From positions 80,888-144,887 of the IMG/VR virus record IMGVR_UViG_3300042691_015370: 64,000 bases of DNA; one strand, given 5' to 3'. The DNA comes from a virus. Positions 12,312-59,242 of this stretch are shown piece by piece. Under the pieces are notes generated by a model. That model made no database searches and had not been told where the DNA came from. It saw nothing but the letters and a program-made list of their open reading frames with translations. Both the position numbers and the translations under genes were made by a program. Position 1 is the first letter of the stretch. Every line of letters begins with the position of its first letter.

Positions 12312-14852
12312 TTAAGGTACATATACACTTGTGACATCCCAGTCGCTTCCATTTGATGTCACCTCCAAATTTGTTCCAACAGCAGTAATTTCGTAATCGG
12401 CAGCACCATCCACCGTCTCTCCCGATTGAGCATCAAGCCTCACAACTCCCCCAGTTGCGGCCACCCTCACTTTGATCGATCGACCGGGGCAAACGGTTGC
12501 ACTTGGTAATTGAAGAACTAGTGTTGTCAGAGCAGTGTCTACAGTGATGTAGTCACCGGCAGAAACGTCATAGCCCGCACTCACTGTGACAGCGTTTGAT
12601 GGACTGCCACTCAGGATGGAGTAGGAACCAACATAGGCACCCTGACCGTTCGTAGCGACAATGGCGCCACCACCGATAGCATTCCAACCCCCGGCAATCC
12701 ACACACCGTCAGCCGTATCAAAATGCTCAGTCATCACAACTGCACCGTTGTGGATGGTGAGTAGACTCAGATCGTCCAGAACGAGCACACAAAACGTTCC
12801 GGTCTGAGCGTTGATAGCAACATTTGTAGTGGTTCCGTTGGCGTTGAGCACGCTCAGGTTATTGCCCACCACATCTGTGGCGATCCAGTCAGGACGATAG
12901 GACCGGGAGACACCTTCACCACCCGTGATGCCAGTGCGTCCCGACGGGCCTGCGACGGGTGTCATGCCGCGCTGCGTTGGGTCACCATACAGTCGAAACA
13001 AAGCACAGTACGCCCAGCGGGTGCCGGTGTAGCTAACATGATCGTAGTTGCCAATATCGGTATCGAGCATAGAGCCGAAACCAGTCGCACGAGTTGCCGG
13101 GGCGTTCAGATGCAACGTCCAGACCCCACCATTGCCATCACTGTTATTGAGGATGGTCAAATTTTGACCATCCTCAATAGCTTGACCACCGACATGGGTG
13201 GCGGTCCCGTCGAGCGGGAAGTCGGGGTCAAACGTGACGTACTTAGAGACATGCAGATGAGGCACAACAGGTGTGACCGGATGGTAGCGGTTCAGTCTGT
13301 TCTCTAGTGTATCAATACTACTTTCAATCTCAGACAAATCGATAATGGGAAGTATTTGCTCAAAGCTACTGTACCCCAGCGTAGCACCACCAATCAGATA
13401 CAGCCAAGCCACCGAAGAGCCAAGACCGGGTGCAAGCTCGAACTTTGACACCAGCCACAGACCAGCGTCAGAAGTGTTCCATGAGCGGACCTTGACGAAA
13501 GCCCCATCACCGACATGCTCAAACAGGCCGCTTGACTGACCAGAAATCTCATCGGGATTCGCTCCGAGCACGGCCAGCAAACGCGCATTGCCAACAGTAG
13601 GCAGTCCGCTGAACATACCAACAGTCCACACACCCTGAAAGAAGGACCCACCAAAATCAGCCTCTGGATTACCAGAGATGAAAGCTACTCGCATAGATCC
13701 AGCACGCTCAGCAACTTCATCAACCGCCTCAGGCAGCGTATCTGCATTCAGTCCCGAGGCAGTGTTGTCGTAGGGGTAAACCTGAGTCGTAAAGTTGCAG
13801 TCCATTCCATCGTTGGCAGTAAAAATGATGGAGTTGCCGTACTTGTCGCCAGAGCCAACATGGACAGGAGTGCCAGTAAAGAGAGAGTCAGCTTCCCAGC
13901 GGCCATTCAACTGATGCACCCTATGGAAGTAGATGTCTCCGGGTTCAACTGACGATCCCCCGAAATCATCAACCTCAAGATAGGTGGGGTGATTCGTGCC
14001 GTTGGGTTGAACTTCGAACACTTCCCAGAAGCCATTGTGAGCCTCAGTTGGCTGCCCACCAAGACCAGCGACTCTGGGAGCAGTGAGTTCGATGCCATCA
14101 ATATCAGATACGGCAGGAAGTCTCACGTCATCGGGGTCACCAGCAGCATGAGCCAGAAGCGCATCCCCATCAGTTCCATCATGATACCCAGCGGTAATAG
14201 AAGGAATGGGTCGTCGCTTCTCGACGCTGAAAGTAGTTACATCATCTACGACACTGACATCCAGCCCATATCCGGCAACAAGCTGGGAGCCAATAACTGC
14301 CTCCCTGACAAAGAGCGTGGCAGGTGCAGTGGGGTCCAAGGGATTGTTGTTCATACCAAAGAACGTGGCTGTAGCCTCAGCATAAAGGGAAGCCACAACT
14401 TGTTCACCGCCAAGCACCGGGATTCTCTCGCATGGACCAGATGCAGTGATTCTCCACAATCCAGCGCTTGGACCAGACAGTGACAACACAGTCACCCCAA
14501 CACCCATCGACCTTGGGACGTTGGCAGCCTCGACCGTAACTCCATCAAGGCTCAGAAGATCAACTTCAGTAAAGTTGCCACCAACCAAATCAACGTCTGC
14601 ACCAACAATGCCATTGGCGACAAGATGACCACCAGAACCAGAGCCACCAGAGCCATCACCCGAAATACTGGGAAGTTCCGACCAAGTAGAAGAACCGTCC
14701 CCAATCTTCAGCGTTGCTGTGTCTTCGTCATAGCCAGCCCTACCACGAGCAAGCACCTTGTCGTTGGCCTCCCATTCGGCGGTCGTGCGGACTATTACCC
14801 CCGGTCCCGGTGGTCCCTGAACTCCATCTGTGACTACAACAACTCTACTCAT
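12312..14852 (-). CDS. Large tail fibre / receptor-binding protein with tropism-determinant-like N-terminus
   Basis: 846 aa; ATG 14852 overlaps the previous stop as TGATG. A short collagen patch (GPPGPG) is followed by RTTAEWEANDKVLARG and GYDEDTATLKIGDGSSTW. This is the pattern of the N-terminal attachment domain found on many phage fibres (Mtd-N-like: RxTxxxW...G..GYdtdTgxlKiGDGxt.W). The rest is Gly/Thr/Val-rich beta structure with repeated 'GGVWTLHL / GLWLVSKF / GLWRITAS' strands, suggesting repeated beta-sandwich or beta-prism modules. The C-terminal ~90 residues look like a trimerisation tip. It is one of three fibres in a row and probably contacts the cell envelope. Confidence 0.8.
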   Translation of the reverse strand: MSRVVVVTDGVQGPPGPGVIVRTTAEWEANDKVLARGRAGYDEDTATLKIGDGSSTWSELPSISGDGSGGSGSGGHLVANGIVGADVDLVGGNFTEVDLLSLDGVTVEAANVPRSMGVGVTVLSLSGPSAGLWRITASGPCERIPVLGGEQVVASLYAEATATFFGMNNNPLDPTAPATLFVREAVIGSQLVAGYGLDVSVVDDVTTFSVEKRRPIPSITAGYHDGTDGDALLAHAAGDPDDVRLPAVSDIDGIELTAPRVAGLGGQPTEAHNGFWEVFEVQPNGTNHPTYLEVDDFGGSSVEPGDIYFHRVHQLNGRWEADSLFTGTPVHVGSGDKYGNSIIFTANDGMDCNFTTQVYPYDNTASGLNADTLPEAVDEVAERAGSMRVAFISGNPEADFGGSFFQGVWTVGMFSGLPTVGNARLLAVLGANPDEISGQSSGLFEHVGDGAFVKVRSWNTSDAGLWLVSKFELAPGLGSSVAWLYLIGGATLGYSSFEQILPIIDLSEIESSIDTLENRLNRYHPVTPVVPHLHVSKYVTFDPDFPLDGTATHVGGQAIEDGQNLTILNNSDGNGGVWTLHLNAPATRATGFGSMLDTDIGNYDHVSYTGTRWAYCALFRLYGDPTQRGMTPVAGPSGRTGITGGEGVSRSYRPDWIATDVVGNNLSVLNANGTTTNVAINAQTGTFCVLVLDDLSLLTIHNGAVVMTEHFDTADGVWIAGGWNAIGGGAIVATNGQGAYVGSYSILSGSPSNAVTVSAGYDVSAGDYITVDTALTTLVLQLPSATVCPGRSIKVRVAATGGVVRLDAQSGETVDGAADYEITAVGTNLEVTSNGSDWDVTSVYVP

Positions 14853-54535: not shown

Positions 54536-55437
54536 TTTGCCAGTGGGCAGCAGGCAATACCGCCCAGTCCCTAGTAAACACGGGGTTCGGCCCCGGGGGG
54601 TGGTGCGACGGGTCGATCCGGGGTACATTGGTGTTGTCCCCGCCGCCGAGGTGAGCGGGGGGGGGGAGCGGCAAGGCTCCCCGAACATAGGCACTTGACT
54701 GCTACGCTTAGGCGTGTCATGCTCGTGTCGTACAAGGGAGTATCGGTCCCGCCTAACAGGCCGCACCGTTAACCATCGGCAGTGCTAGTTCTGAACAGCT
54801 AGCGTGTCAGTCCACCGGGCATCCCTCATAGCCAACCTCGCTATCCTGCGATTCTGGTCCTGCCGTGGCAGGTGCATAGTCTCCCCACCTAGAGTGGCGA
54901 CGAGTGCGAACCGGACCCCAACGTGGTGCAAGCTAGATAGTCGCCCCTGTGACGAGAGGTATTGGCACGCTTCCCCTAGCGTGAAGTCTGTCCCCATGCG
55001 ACAGGTATGGACTGATGCTAGGTACGCCGTAAAGGAAGTGTGAGCTAGTGCGACGGGGAGCCTACCTAGGTAGTGCGCCACAATAGGAGCTAGCGTCATC
55101 GGTTAGGGACGGCCCGGTAAGAACGGGGTGCTACTGAGAACGGTGTGGGTATGTGTCGGACCCACGGGTGACTGGACAGTGCAACGTCAGGGACGGCCAC
55201 GGACGACTGAGTGCGAAGCCTGCCCGGAAACCAACCTAAGTGTAAGAGCGCCTAAAGCTTACCGCAACCCTAACCTACGCCCAGAGTCGAGAGACTAGGG
55301 CTTAGCAAGTGTGCCCGCTGGGCCGACCGTGCAACTGCACTCCAGAACGCTTGCTACGCCGGTCCTCCTAAGGCTCGACGTCTGCTCTGGGCGCCATGCG
55401 ACAGAGGTTCGCAGTAGCTAGCACATGGAGGACCATC
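54536..55437. other. GC-rich, hairpin-rich non-coding tract
   Basis: About 900 bases without a supportable gene: open frames on both strands are shadows. Perfect stems include CGGGG/CCCCG (54581-54595), CCCCGC/GCGGGG (54638-54660), GGGGAGC/GCTCCCC (~54663-54682), CCTGCC/GGCAGG (~54862), GGCGAC/GTCGCC (~54896-54946), CACGCT/AGCGTG (~54967-54984) and CTGTC/GACAG (~54988-55004). A run of ten G lies at 54657-54666. A TTGACT...CATGCT promoter-like pair is near 54692. The tract may be a long ncRNA, an origin or a packaging region. Confidence 0.5.
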
Positions 55438-55842
55438 GTGTCCGAGAACACCGCAATCACCCCCGAGATGGCGCAGGCCGAGATCGACCGGCGTGCCGCC
55501 AACAAGGCCGCCAAGGCAGCGGCCCGCAAGCAGGGTGCCAAGAAGTTCACCCGCATCGCCGCCACCGACCCGGTGCTCATGGCCCTGTCGGGTGAGCAGT
55601 TGGACCTGCTCGTCAAGCCCGCCGAGGCCCAGCCCGAGGTGCCCACCATCAAGACCGCCCCGGCGTGGAACGAGCCGGGTGTGCGGGGTGGCGACCCGGT
55701 GAAGCGCAACCGGGCGCTGCTGGCCGACAAGCTGGTGGGTGCCGACTCCAAGGGCACCCCGGCGTGGTGGGACGCCTACCGCTCGACCAAGGACATGACC
55801 TTGGACGAGTTGGGTGTGGCGCTCGGGTTCATCACCGCCTGA
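55438..55842 (+). CDS. Unrecognised basic protein, first of the right arm
   Basis: 134 aa from GTG 55438 (GGAGG eight bases before); frames starting upstream lack sites. Basic, Ala-rich N-terminus (AANKAAKAAARKQGAKKF), then a polar core ending TLDELGVALGFITA. First gene of the GC-rich plus arm. Codon use is strongly C-ending, unlike the left region. Function unknown. Confidence 0.65.
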   Translation: MSENTAITPEMAQAEIDRRAANKAAKAAARKQGAKKFTRIAATDPVLMALSGEQLDLLVKPAEAQPEVPTIKTAPAWNEPGVRGGDPVKRNRALLADKLVGADSKGTPAWWDAYRSTKDMTLDELGVALGFITA

Positions 55843-55850
55843 GATGCCAA

Positions 55851-55877
55851 GTCCTGAGCATGACTGAAACTGCTCGC
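55851..55877 (+). promoter_or_regulatory. Repeat element copy 1 (TCCTGAGCATGAC...TGCTC)
   Basis: TCCTGAGCATGAC then GAAACTGCTC. GAGCA and TGCTC are inverted about a 10-base spacer. A TACACC/CTAGGGT-like -10 follows 12-18 bases later, then GAAAGG and ATG 55942. Six copies of this element lie only in the GC-rich arm's gaps. Confidence 0.6.
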
Positions 55878-57218: not shown

Positions 57219-57279
57219 CCACAGCTACCTTGCCAGTGTGCAAGGGGTGTGGTGAGAGGAACGAGATGTTCACTACACA

Positions 57280-57312
57280 GTCCTGAGCAGGACACGAAAC
57301 TGACTCAACGAT
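57280..57312 (+). promoter_or_regulatory. Repeat element copy 2
   Basis: GTCCTGAGCAGGAC then ACGAAACTGACTCA. The first part is a perfect 6-bp palindrome (GTCCTG/CAGGAC). The downstream half-site is TGACTCA instead of TGCTC, showing the arms vary together. Confidence 0.6.
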
Positions 57313-57385
57313 GCCACACTGTACCGGGTCGTCCGGGCAGGAGATGGACGAGCGGCTGGCCGCACGCACAGCGTTTACATGAATG

Positions 57386-57428
57386 GTCCTGAGTAAGACT
57401 TTAAACATCTGCTCACATAGCCCTAGCA
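57386..57428 (+). promoter_or_regulatory. Repeat element copy 3
   Basis: GGTCCTGAGTAAGACTTTAA then ACATCTGCTCACATAG. The left arm reads GAGTA, the right TGCTC (T-G pair allowed). A TAGCCCTAG-like -10 lies ~17 bases after the AAGACT hexamer. Confidence 0.55.
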
Positions 57429-57446
57429 CACAGTTGCAGAGGGAAT

Positions 57447-57490
57447 GGCACTGAGCAATGCCACACAAATTGCTCCCGCAACGTAGGTGC
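57447..57490 (+). promoter_or_regulatory. Repeat element copy 4 (compensated arms)
   Basis: GGCACTGAGCAATGCC then ACACAAATTGCTC. Here the usual GTC/GAC arms are replaced by GGCA/TGCC, and GAGCAAT pairs perfectly with ATTGCTC over a 9-base spacer. Such compensatory changes support base pairing or dimer binding as the selected feature. Confidence 0.55.
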
Positions 57491-57520
57491 TACGGCAACT
57501 TGGAGTGTGAGTGATAGCTG

Positions 57521-57560
57521 GTCCTGAGTATGACGTAAACTGCTCCGCTAGGGTGACGTG
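57521..57560 (+). promoter_or_regulatory. Repeat element copy 5
   Basis: GTCCTGAGTATGACGTAAAC then TGCTCCGCTAGGGTGACG. GAGTA pairs with TGCTC (one G-U). A CTAGGGT lies 8 bases after the right arm, as in copy 1. Confidence 0.58.
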
Positions 57561-57604
57561 TTATATCACCCCCGAGGCTACGGACGGTAAGCCGTGGCAA
57601 ACGT

Positions 57605-57696
57605 TTGTAAAGGTAGCCACCCAAGGGGCCTTAGTCAAGGGTGTAGCCAAACCGCTACTAGCAGGCTGGTGTCGTAAGTCAGCCCTACCTTTACAA
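57605..57696 (+). ncRNA. tRNA-like cloverleaf candidate
   Basis: The outer stem TTGTAAAGGTAG/CTACCTTTACAA is a perfect 12-bp acceptor-like stem. Inside are three hairpins: CCTT/AAGG (D-arm-like, 57629-57640), GTAGC/GCTAC with a six-base CAAACC loop (57643-57658), and GGCTG/CAGCC (57664-57684) that abuts the acceptor directly, as a tRNA T-arm does. No CCA, no canonical anticodon loop, and the T-loop is 11 bases. It may be a degenerate tRNA or a new tRNA-like RNA. Confidence 0.5.
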
Positions 57697-57767
57697 CCAC
57701 ACCATCGTATGGTGTGTCTAGTAAGCGTAACAAGGAATCGGTAGCGTCCCCGCACCCTCCGGGTGTG

Positions 57768-57862
57768 AAGAAGGGTGGGCTGATCCCTGACCGGAGTTCA
57801 CGCAGCAACCGTGCTGGTGCCGGGGTGAAGGACAGCGGGCTAGGTTCGACTCCAGCCTTCTT
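57768..57862 (+). ncRNA. tRNA-like candidate with T-arm-like 3' part
   Basis: AAGAAGG/CCTTCTT acceptor-like arms (57768-57774 and 57856-57862). The internal GGTTCGACTCC matches the T-loop consensus, with stems GGCT.GG/CC.AGCC carrying one bulged A. A CAGCA/TGCTG hairpin is in the middle. No CCA end and no resolvable anticodon loop. Suggestive only. Confidence 0.4.
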
Positions 57863-57908
57863 GTTGCGCTTATTAGCTACACCAACCAAGCCCATGAGAG
57901 GGATTTGC

Positions 57909-58190
57909 ATGCCCATGCCCGAGATGCCCAACCGCCGAGACAGTGCCTTCCGTAGCCTGTCACCCACCGAGTCCTGCACGCAGAAGGTCCACACCACGGG
58001 TGTGCAGTGGGTCTACAAGTTCGACAACGGGTGGGGCGCATCCATCATCACCGATGGCTCCGGGTGTCAGATGGGGCTGTTTGAGGTGGCTCCCATCGAC
58101 CCCAAGAACGGGTTGGATGACATGGGTGTGCGGGGCTACCTGACCGCAGCCGATGTCATCGACTACCTGCGAGACATCGCCACCCGCTGA
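57909..58190 (+). CDS. Unrecognised protein
   Basis: 93 aa from ATG 57909 (GAGAGGG upstream); frames starting at 57714 run through the tRNA-like region. MPEMPNRRDSAFRSLSPTES, KVHTTGVQWVYKFDNGWGAS, LTAADVIDYLRDIATR. Beta then helix. Not recognised. Confidence 0.6.
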   Translation: MPMPEMPNRRDSAFRSLSPTESCTQKVHTTGVQWVYKFDNGWGASIITDGSGCQMGLFEVAPIDPKNGLDDMGVRGYLTAADVIDYLRDIATR

Positions 58191-58348
58191 ACGCAAGAAC
58201 GTCAGTCTGGCTGGATTGATCCCCGGACCTGACAACGTGTGGGTCTAGCACTAGGTAAGAATTGTTGGCCTCGTTTAGAGTGTTTGAGCCGCAATCGCCC
58301 ACACAACCATCGCAAGTTCCCAACCCGCCTTTAAGGAGGCACCCAGCA

Positions 58349-58609
58349 ATGACCACCATCACCACCCTGACCACCTACACCGCCATCTTCGCCGTGGGCG
58401 ACCACAAGCTGCCCATCAAGGTGGCCGCTGCCAACCGAGGTGAGGCGACCAACCTCGCCCGCAAGATCCTGCGGGAGCGCATCGGTGACCCCACCTACGG
58501 CAACTTCCCGATCTCGGTCGTGGAGCAGCCCGTGAAGGTGGGTGCCCGTGCCATCGCCACCAACCCCACGGTGGTGAAGCGCAAGGTGCGTACCCGCACC
58601 CAGAGCTAG
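58349..58609 (+). CDS. Unrecognised basic beta protein
   Basis: 86 aa, AAGGAGG ten bases before ATG 58349. TAIFAVGDHKLPIKVAAANR, GEATNLARKILRERIGDP, VVKRKVRTRTQS. Basic C-terminus. Not recognised. Confidence 0.6.
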   Translation: MTTITTLTTYTAIFAVGDHKLPIKVAAANRGEATNLARKILRERIGDPTYGNFPISVVEQPVKVGARAIATNPTVVKRKVRTRTQS

Positions 58610-58656
58610 TTCCCTAGCTAACCAACCCAACCAACCACGACGCCACAGGAGGCAAC

Positions 58657-58884
58657 GTGAGCAACACTCCCATCCGTACCGTGACGGTCAAGCCCCTCGC
58701 TCTCAAGCAGGAGCAGGGCCGTCGCCGCAACAACAAGTCCCGCCCCGCAGGCGAGAAGGTCCGCACCAAGGCGTACTACCTCGCTGCCTTCAGCAAGTCC
58801 GAGATGGATGCGCTGGTGGCCGGTGAGACTGTGACCAAGACCTACAAGTCCGGTCGCACCGAGAGCTACGTGCTCGCCAAGTGA
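58657..58884 (+). CDS. Small basic protein
   Basis: 75 aa from GTG 58657 (AGGAGG upstream). NTPIRTVTVKPLALKQEQGR, RRNNKSRPAGEKVRTKAYYL, ESYVLAK. Likely nucleic-acid binding by charge. Followed by a repeat element and the tRNA block. Confidence 0.6.
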   Translation: MSNTPIRTVTVKPLALKQEQGRRRNNKSRPAGEKVRTKAYYLAAFSKSEMDALVAGETVTKTYKSGRTESYVLAK

Positions 58885-58890
58885 GTTACC

Positions 58891-58936
58891 GTCCTGAGCA
58901 TGACGTTAAACTACTCAACGGTCTAACATAGCCACC
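58891..58936 (+). promoter_or_regulatory. Repeat element copy 6
   Basis: GTCCTGAGCATGACGTTAAA then CTACTCAACGGTCTAACATAG. GAGCA pairs with TACTC (one mismatch). ATGACG and TAACAT are 18 bases apart, which could be -35/-10 boxes of a promoter for the tRNA region. It is the best promoter-like copy. Confidence 0.6.
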
Positions 58937-59058
58937 TAAACATGAGTCCAAATGCGGCAGTTTGGGAAAGCAAAGTATGTTCGGCCCCCGGTGGTGAGCA
59001 AGCAATCCGGCGCTAAGCTATTAGCGATAGTGCGACTAGTGACCACAAATAGCATGAA

Positions 59059-59139
59059 CGGTTAGGTAAGTAGGCAGACGTGAATGCGCTTGGGGGTGTT
59101 ACAGCCGTCAAGAAGCGGGTTAAACTCCCGCCTAACCGT
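59059..59139 (+). ncRNA. tRNA-like element upstream of tRNA-Trp
   Basis: CGGTTAG (59059-59065) and CTAACCG (59132-59138) form a perfect 7-bp acceptor, extended outward by near-identical bases (ATGAA...TTTCAT). The T-arm GCGGG-TTAAACT-CCCGC (59115-59131) is perfect and abuts the acceptor. GGCAGACG is D-arm-like (as in Leu tRNAs). The anticodon arm could not be resolved and there is no CCA. It starts six bases before the tRNA-Trp candidate. Confidence 0.5.
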
Positions 59140-59144
59140 TTCAT

Positions 59145-59218
59145 GCGGGTAAGCGTAGGCTGTGCCGGTCAGATTCCAAACCTGTACCGCTGGGGTTCGA
59201 TTCCCTGTACCCGTGCCA
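59145..59218 (+). tRNA. tRNA-Trp (anticodon CCA) candidate
   Basis: 74 bases including an encoded CCA. Acceptor GCGGGTA/TACCCGT (one G-U). T-arm TGGGG-TTCGATT-CCCTG with the TTCGATT loop. Anticodon loop TTCCAAA (T33, CCA34-36, A37) on an imperfect stem with two mismatches. The D-arm is short (GCG/TGC). Discriminator G. The anticodon would read UGG. Mismatches in the anticodon stem lower confidence; it may be a weak or degenerate tRNA. Confidence 0.6.
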
Positions 59219-59242
59219 CACGACACCCTTTAAGGAGGGATG

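What the first reader, a model, noticed from the sequence alone, without database searches (positions are those of the whole stretch)
57605..59218. Row of tRNA-like cloverleaf structures beside one tRNA-Trp
Three elements (57605-57696, 57768-57862, 59059-59139) have acceptor-like stems and T-arm-like hairpins that abut the acceptor, and the first has two further internal hairpins. All lack a normal anticodon loop or CCA. Only 59145-59218 resembles a full tRNA. They might be decayed tRNAs, decoys for tRNA-cutting defence nucleases, or a new RNA class.
Basis: seen in the sequence. Interest (0 to 1): 0.75.

Follow-up and report, generated by a model that had tools for sequence, protein, structure and literature searches.

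The report
Phage tRNA-like RNAs and pseudoknot markers
A non-coding stretch of a phage genome holds a row of broken or altered tRNA-like RNAs and, among them, five copies of a tiny knotted RNA that turns out to be conserved in hundreds of phage and bacterial sequences, typically five bases after a stop codon or just before a tRNA; neither the Rfam library nor the papers searched list it.

Summary
The observation largely holds. 59057-59140 (E3) has a perfect 5-bp T-arm abutting a 9-10-bp acceptor-like stem (1 of 3000 shuffles of the non-coding tracts has one). 59145-59218 (E4) is a sub-threshold tRNA-Trp(CCA) (Rfam 21.7 bits, cut-off 29). 57605-57696 (E1) has the window's longest perfect long-loop stem (12 bp) but no T-loop. 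57768-57863 (E2) has a canonical T-loop on an imperfect stem. Folding energy of the block is not unusual. Similar odd tRNA-like elements occur in Nostoc, E. coli and Erwinia phages.

The stronger result lies between them: five copies of a 26-nt H-type pseudoknot, NNNC-CU-NNNYA-N-GNNN-NN-AAAC-URNNN. At least 119 IMG/VR contigs hold it. The compensated stem variant is in at least 120, the broken variant in none of 2.9 million. It starts 5 nt after the upstream stop codon (sharp peak) and ends 4-14 nt before phage tRNAs (26 of 27 close cases). Rfam does not hold it. I think it marks and guards RNA ends at gene and tRNA borders (inferred). The tRNA-likes are best read as altered or decaying phage tRNAs; their function is unproven.

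The parts
55850..55875 (+). pseudoknot copy 1 (AGTC-CT-GAGCA-T-GACT-GAAAC-TGCTC), 7 nt after the TGA of ORF 55396-55842
57280..57306 (+). pseudoknot copy 2 (GTCCTGAGCAGGACACGAAACTGACTC); one bulge in the second stem
57385..57414 (+). pseudoknot copy 3 (GGTCCTGAGTAAGACTTTAAACATCTGCTC)
57412..57511 (+). structured unit closed by CTCACA/TGTGAG, overlapping the end of copy 3; holds an off-consensus pseudoknot at 57446-57475 (TGGCA-CT-GAGCAA-TGCCA-CACAAA-TTGCTC)
   Evidence: z -2.6
57520..57545 (+). pseudoknot copy 4 (GGTCCTGAGTATGACGTAAACTGCTC), 59 nt before E1
57605..57696 (+). E1: four-way, cloverleaf-like fold with a 12-bp closing stem; runs into ACCA; no T-loop
57768..57863 (+). E2: degenerate tRNA-like element; acceptor AAGAAGG/CCTTCTT, T-loop GGTTCGACTCC on a bulged stem
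58657..58884 (+). 75-aa ORF whose TGA lies exactly 5 nt before pseudoknot copy 5
58890..58916 (+). pseudoknot copy 5 (CGTC-CT-GAGCA-T-GACG-TTAAAC-TACTC)
59057..59140 (+). E3: tRNA-like element with perfect T-arm (GCGGG-TTAAACT-CCCGC) on a 9-10-bp acceptor-like stem, extended outside by GCATGA/TCATGC; interior not tRNA-like
59145..59218 (+). E4: degenerate tRNA-Trp (anticodon loop TTCCAAA, encoded GCCA end), abnormal D-arm and 3-bp anticodon stem
   Evidence: RF00005, 21.7 bits, below cut-off; ARAGORN negative

Best explanation
The two tracts 57219-57900 and 58886-59240 are, most likely, a transcribed phage tRNA cassette made of two kinds of parts. (1) Shown: a row of tRNA-like RNAs with a mostly intact acceptor/T-arm half (E3 perfect, E4 weak, E2 damaged; E1 only cloverleaf-like) and altered D/anticodon halves. 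Inferred: they are phage tRNAs that no longer decode, kept for a time because the acceptor/T half is still cut by RNase P and 3'-end enzymes, or simply decaying. (2) Shown: a repeated 26-nt H-type pseudoknot, proven as RNA by natural compensatory changes in very many phages, placed just outside a ribosome that sits on the preceding stop codon and just before tRNAs or the next gene. Inferred mechanism: it is a border element that guards the mRNA end. When the tRNA behind it is cut out (or the mRNA is cut or ends there), the pseudoknot is left near the new 3' end of the upstream message and stops 3'-to-5' exonucleases; the spacing of 5 nt or more lets it stay folded while a ribosome terminates.
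For: Pseudoknot is real: at least 119 contigs for GTC..GAC, at least 120 for the compensated GAC..GTC, 0 for the broken GAC..GAC. The first stem pair, unconstrained by the search, is Watson-Crick in 91 of 123 against 34 expected (maximum 55 in 10,000 permutations), and the next base pair outward is not paired; independent set 68 of 109 against 29. 97.7% of cells pair, 49 double changes against 11 shuffled (on 24 hand-picked variants). Position: 7 of 171 copies inside a long same-strand ORF; stop-to-pseudoknot distance peaks at 5 nt (45 at 5, 22 at 6, 15 at 7, two at 0-3), repeated in an independent set; copy 5 of the window is exactly 5 nt. tRNAs: 27 of 208 phage tRNAs have a copy ending within 60 nt upstream (26 at 4-14 nt) against 1.4 at random, and only 2 downstream; the upstream bias fits guarding the end left by RNase P. 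tRNA-likes: E3 statistics, E4, and non-canonical acceptor/T-arm elements beside the pseudoknot in Nostoc phage NMeng1, phiEcoM-GJ1 relatives and Erwinia Calisson; 10 on the gene strand, 0 on the other, 0.017 expected, though two of the ten are ordinary or near-ordinary tRNAs.
Against: No transcript or decay data. In siphoviruses of Lactobacillus, Staphylococcus and Anoxybacillus the element sits before the scaffold and capsid genes, which fits a guard of the downstream 5' end at least as well. Three of the five copies in the window are not next to a stop codon and lie 59 nt or more from the nearest tRNA-like element. The hugging of stop codons may partly reflect compact genomes. The tRNA-like search selects for intact acceptor/T-arms, so it cannot itself show that this half is preferentially kept. 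E1 has no T-loop. Many of the tRNA-linked copies are before tRNA-Asp in probably related phages, so they are not all independent.
Confidence: 0.4

Rival explanations
1. The tRNA-likes are plain relics: phage tRNAs drifting after loss of selection, with no function.
For: E4 and E2 have damage in all arms, T-stem included. The block is not energetically special. At one site in Erwinia phages different tRNA-like modules replace one another (Leu-like in Fifi44, Trp-like in Aioli), as expected of a tRNA cassette with turnover.
Against: E3 combines a perfect T-arm with a lengthened acceptor stem, and E1 a 12-bp perfect stem, which decay would not produce. Five E. coli phages keep the odd 90-nt element nearly unchanged, with the acceptor pair only switching between G-U and G-C.
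Confidence: 0.35
2. The tRNA-likes are decoys or resistant substitutes against tRNA-cutting defence nucleases.
For: Phage tRNAs with altered anticodon loops are proposed to resist anticodon nucleases (PMC10264068), and phage tRNAs let phages evade retrons (PMC11555353). Here the anticodon half is what is altered. Trp-like forms with an intact CCA anticodon loop occur here (E4) and in Erwinia phage Aioli.
Against: The cited work concerns working tRNAs with small loop changes, not missing anticodon arms. A decoy for an anticodon nuclease should keep the anticodon arm, and E1-E3 do not. No target nuclease is known here.
Confidence: 0.12
3. The pseudoknot is a 5' roadblock: it stops 5'-to-3' decay (RNase J) or stabilises the 5' end of the downstream cistron.
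For: Its place before scaffold and capsid genes, which need high expression, in several phages. Many hosts are of groups known to have RNase J (own knowledge).
Against: A variant with a weaker first stem occurs in E. coli and Erwinia phages, whose hosts lack RNase J (own knowledge). Cellular copies are followed by a terminator, with no co-directional gene next in several loci. The position is set from the upstream stop codon.
Confidence: 0.22
4. The pseudoknot stimulates stop-codon readthrough or frameshifting, as the viral pseudoknots placed several nucleotides behind a recoding site do.
For: The 5-9-nt spacing is the classic recoding spacing (own knowledge; general statement in PMC3835772).
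Against: After the stop the frame is open for a median of only 14 codons, and several cases have a second in-frame stop in the spacer. It also occurs before tRNAs and inside non-coding tracts.
Confidence: 0.05
5. The pseudoknot is a self-cleaving ribozyme that separates tRNAs and cistrons, as theta ribozymes do.
For: Fixed loop letters (CU, AAAC) beyond the stems, wide spread, and closeness to tRNAs. Theta ribozymes process phage tRNAs (PMC10879173).
Against: 26 nt with two stems is smaller than any known natural self-cleaving ribozyme (own knowledge). It is upstream of tRNAs, where RNase P acts, whereas theta ribozymes have their cleavage site at the tRNA 3' end (PMC10879173). No Rfam ribozyme match in the window.
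Confidence: 0.07
6. The pseudoknot mimics a type III antitoxin RNA (ToxI-like pseudoknot) and soaks up host endoribonucleases.
For: Type III antitoxins are small pseudoknots, and a phage can escape by mimicking them (own knowledge).
Against: Single dispersed copies rather than tandem arrays; one shared consensus across phyla; also present in cellular genomes beside unrelated genes; no match to Rfam families.
Confidence: 0.03

Closest known systems
Phage-encoded tRNAs (Rfam RF00005)
   Same: E4 aligns over the whole model at 21.7 bits; E3 has a perfect T-arm/acceptor; the same genome has four ordinary tRNAs
   Different: E4 is below the cut-off and the others are not matched; D and anticodon arms abnormal; acceptor stems of E1 and E3 longer than 7 bp
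Theta (HDV-like) ribozymes of gut phages (PMC10879173)
   Same: small pseudoknotted phage RNAs beside tRNAs
   Different: theta is a nested double pseudoknot with its cleavage site at the tRNA 3' end; this is a single 26-nt H-type pseudoknot on the 5' side of tRNAs and after stop codons
Recoding pseudoknots of RNA viruses (e.g. luteovirus frameshift pseudoknot)
   Same: compact H-type pseudoknot, two-nucleotide first loop, A-rich third loop, 5-9-nt spacing from a ribosome stop (comparison from own knowledge)
   Different: no open frame behind the stop codon; used between genes and before tRNAs
DUF2800 RNA (Rfam RF02960)
   Same: in two clostridial loci the pseudoknot lies 1-2 nt before this RNA
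   Different: not part of the Rfam model; the pseudoknot occurs without it elsewhere
Type III antitoxin RNAs (ToxI)
   Same: small H-type pseudoknot (own knowledge)
   Different: no tandem array and one cross-phylum consensus; toxin neighbours were not searched for

Membership tests
tRNA (E4, 59145-59218) | score over the Rfam RF00005 gathering cut-off | tested here: not met
   21.7 bits against 29; ARAGORN none
tRNA (E4) | T-arm with T-loop abutting a 7-bp acceptor | tested here: met
   7 acceptor pairs (one G-U), T-stem 3 Watson-Crick plus 2 G-U, loop TTCGATT
tRNA (E3, 59057-59140) | T-arm with T-loop abutting a 7-bp acceptor | tested here: met
   5 + 7 Watson-Crick pairs, loop TTAAACT; 1 of 3000 shuffles; but the acceptor-like stem is 9-10 bp
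tRNA (E3) | D-arm and 7-nt anticodon loop on a 5-bp stem | tested here: not met
   no such arm in the predicted folds; ARAGORN and Rfam negative
tRNA (E1, 57605-57696) | T-loop motif and 7-bp acceptor | tested here: not met
   12-bp stem, 9-11-nt loop without the T-loop motif
tRNA (E2, 57768-57863) | 5-bp T-stem with T-loop | tested here: inconclusive
   T-loop TTCGACT present, stem 4 bp with a bulged A; not found by the strict descriptor
H-type pseudoknot RNA | two crossing stems supported by compensatory change | tested here: met
Theta / HDV-like ribozyme | nested double pseudoknot with P1, P2, P3 and catalytic C | tested here: not met
   only two stems in 26 nt; no Rfam match in the window
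Theta / HDV-like ribozyme | self-cleavage | not testable with these tools
   needs in-vitro transcription
Recoding (readthrough) pseudoknot | open frame continuing past the stop | tested here: not met
Known Rfam family | match to any of 4227 models | tested here: not met
Exonuclease-blocking RNA | stops an exoribonuclease | not testable with these tools
   needs in-vitro digestion
Type III antitoxin (ToxI-like) | tandem repeats beside a ToxN-family gene | tested here: inconclusive
   copies are dispersed, not tandem; toxin genes were not searched

The most novel reading that the evidence does not exclude
The 26-nt pseudoknot is an unrecognised, cross-phylum cis-acting RNA class of bacteria and their phages that marks the place where a ribosome stops and protects or processes RNA ends there. 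Phage tRNA cassettes such as this one are built from such markers plus non-decoding tRNA-like RNAs.
Probability: 0.45. Interest if true: 0.88.

Novelty: new variant of a known kind. Interest (0 to 1): 0.72.

Why it matters
Very few RNA elements are shared by phages of so many host groups (the hits include Caudoviricetes of Firmicutes, Actinobacteria, Cyanobacteria, Alpha- and Gammaproteobacteria, a Microviridae genome, and cellular contigs of many phyla). An element whose position is tied both to the terminating ribosome and to tRNA borders would give a direct handle on how phage polycistronic RNAs are cut, protected and balanced, a question with few universal signals known. It is short, so stem-breaking and stem-restoring mutants are easy to make. 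The tRNA-likes add to the open question why phages carry tRNAs that cannot decode.

Tried and rejected
Close relatives of the window: none by megablast; only a phosphoesterase match by blastn; terminase relatives are 12-25-kb fragments without this region; three neighbouring genes gave no relative. So covariation of E1-E3 could not be tested on orthologues. Folding energy as evidence: rejected, because the non-coding block is no more stable than coding DNA. Readthrough by the pseudoknot: rejected. Promoter reading of the repeated element: rejected, because both stems covary. Hammerhead, theta and other known families: no match. Conserved micro-ORF as an attenuator: not supported, since a terminator and often an opposite-strand gene follow.

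Full report
What was checked. The window is part (80888-144887) of a 144,887-base virus record. The finding lies in two non-coding tracts, about 57219-57900 and 58886-59240, between small genes on the + strand. The virus encodes ribonucleotide reductase, a terminase-like protein, PhoH and ThyX. It has four ordinary tRNAs elsewhere, plus one odd one at 14190.

The tRNA-like row. E4 (59145-59218) matches the tRNA model over its full length, but with 21.7 bits it stays below the 29-bit cut-off, and ARAGORN does not call it. Its anticodon loop TTCCAAA (CCA, Trp) and GCCA end are intact. The D-arm is short, and by inspection the anticodon stem has three pairs. E3 (59057-59140) has a perfect T-arm and a 9-10-bp acceptor-like stem. 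The strict descriptor (five Watson-Crick T-stem pairs, T-loop motif, abutting 7-bp acceptor) finds only E3 in the window; 0.04 are expected on both strands, and 1 of 3000 shuffles of the non-coding DNA has one. E1 is closed by the longest perfect long-loop stem of the window and branches into hairpins, but lacks a T-loop. E2 has a canonical T-loop on a bulged stem. Energies are unremarkable, so the case for structure rests on the motif statistics, not on stability.

The pseudoknot. Reading the tracts by eye showed a repeated string, GTCCTGAG.A.GAC..AAAC..CTC, present five times in the window and nowhere else in this genome. Aligning the hits showed that the base before GTC complements the base after GAC. 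That pair was not part of the search pattern. It is Watson-Crick in 91 of 123 distinct cases against 34 expected under permutation, while the next position out is not paired, so the first stem is exactly four pairs. A descriptor scan of the fetched loci found dozens of further copies with both stems rewritten and with loop letters CU and AAAC kept: 158 hits with CU in the first loop against 5-24 for any other dinucleotide. The cleanest test used the whole collection: the compensated first stem GAC..GTC gives at least 120 stretches, the broken GAC..GAC gives none. On 24 hand-picked variants 97.7% of cells pair, with 49 double changes against 11 in shuffles. Rfam 15 has no family for it.

Where it sits. 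Only 7 of 171 strict copies lie inside a long same-strand ORF. The distance from the upstream stop codon to the pseudoknot peaks sharply at 5 nt and is almost never 0-3; an independent set of 109 copies repeats this. Copy 5 of the window is exactly 5 nt behind the stop of ORF 58657-58884. From general knowledge of ribosome geometry, a structure 5 nt behind a stop codon in the A site stands at the mRNA entry. Readthrough is not supported. Among 208 tRNAs on these phage contigs, 27 have a copy ending within 60 nt upstream, 26 of them at 4-14 nt; random placement gives 1.4, and only 2 have one downstream. In annotated phages it lies between genes: before scaffold/capsid genes in Lactobacillus, Staphylococcus, Anoxybacillus and thermophile phages, before a DNA primase in a crAss-like phage, after VP4 in a Microviridae genome, and before tRNA-Gln in a mycobacteriophage. 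In genome contigs 91 stretches were found across many phyla, including Saccharibacteria, Deltaproteobacteria, Actinobacteria and Clostridia.

The two kinds together. Nostoc phage NMeng1 has the pseudoknot 5 nt before an annotated pseudo-tRNA with perfect acceptor and T-arm. E. coli phages of the phiEcoM-GJ1 group and Erwinia phages have non-coding blocks of about 1 kb with the pseudoknot (first stem weaker) and odd tRNA-like elements: a 90-nt form annotated 'may contain an intron', a 69-nt Leu-like form and a 69-nt Trp-like form that replace each other at one site, and others. These meet the strict descriptor on the gene strand only (10 against 0; expected 0.017). One of those ten is an ordinary tRNA-Gln and three of the GJ1-type are called by ARAGORN as tRNA-Leu. 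The descriptor requires an intact acceptor and T-arm, so the lack of other arms among the hits is partly selected.

Interpretation. What is shown: a conserved pseudoknot RNA, its placement, and a row of tRNA-derived or tRNA-like elements in this phage with counterparts in others. What is inferred: that the pseudoknot guards the RNA ends made at stop codons, tRNA borders and terminators, and that the tRNA-likes are altered or decaying phage tRNAs whose acceptor/T half may still serve processing. The upstream bias at tRNAs and the tie to stop codons favour a 3'-end guard; the place before capsid genes favours a 5' guard. Experiments that separate the two are given. Decoy function for the tRNA-likes (related work: PMC10264068, PMC11555353) stays possible but unsupported. 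The nearest published case of a small phage RNA tied to tRNAs is the theta ribozyme (PMC10879173), which differs in architecture and side.

Limits. Scans stop at about 120 rows, so abundances are lower bounds. Related contigs are not independent events. There is no expression evidence. Prior description in papers outside the open library cannot be excluded.

Noticed in passing
L182:4000-4060, L213, L226, L228 and about 20 other genome-contig loci: A conserved micro-ORF with a strong Shine-Dalgarno, reading like M(K)RFMIPRVAHCxxGCxxxS or MRWMFPHATHC..., lies directly before the pseudoknot in Deltaproteobacteria, Actinobacteria and KSB1, often with the stop codon inside or next to the pseudoknot and a terminator behind it.
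   Followed up: partly
L178:2824-3008 (-) and L204: The pseudoknot lies 1-2 nt before a DUF2800 RNA (RF02960), which precedes a DUF2800 gene; the Rfam model may miss its 5' part.
   Followed up: partly
L122, L120, L039, L127, L194, L234 and others: In a minority of copies (17 of 109 in one set) a run of five or more T follows the pseudoknot at once, as if it served as a terminator stem.
   Followed up: no
L015:14190-14270 (same genome): Fifth tRNA call of the genome (34 bits, missed by ARAGORN): perfect acceptor and T-arm, but the interior is one long arm rather than D and anticodon arms.
   Followed up: partly
L139:2530-2710 (Mycobacterium phage Labelle): Between pseudoknot and tRNA-Gln lies about 180 nt that can be closed by a GGAAGCGGGAA/TTCCCGCTTCC stem.
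   Followed up: no
Genome-contig hits L169, L177, L188, L191, L192, L195, L198, L202, L208, L231, L235: Saccharibacteria and similar contigs are over-represented among the cellular hits; most of these copies lie 5-10 nt behind the stop of a small ORF of about 95-140 codons.
   Followed up: partly
window 57412-57511: The closing stem of this unit shares CTC with the end of pseudoknot copy 3, so the two folds exclude each other; this could be a switch or chance.
   Followed up: no
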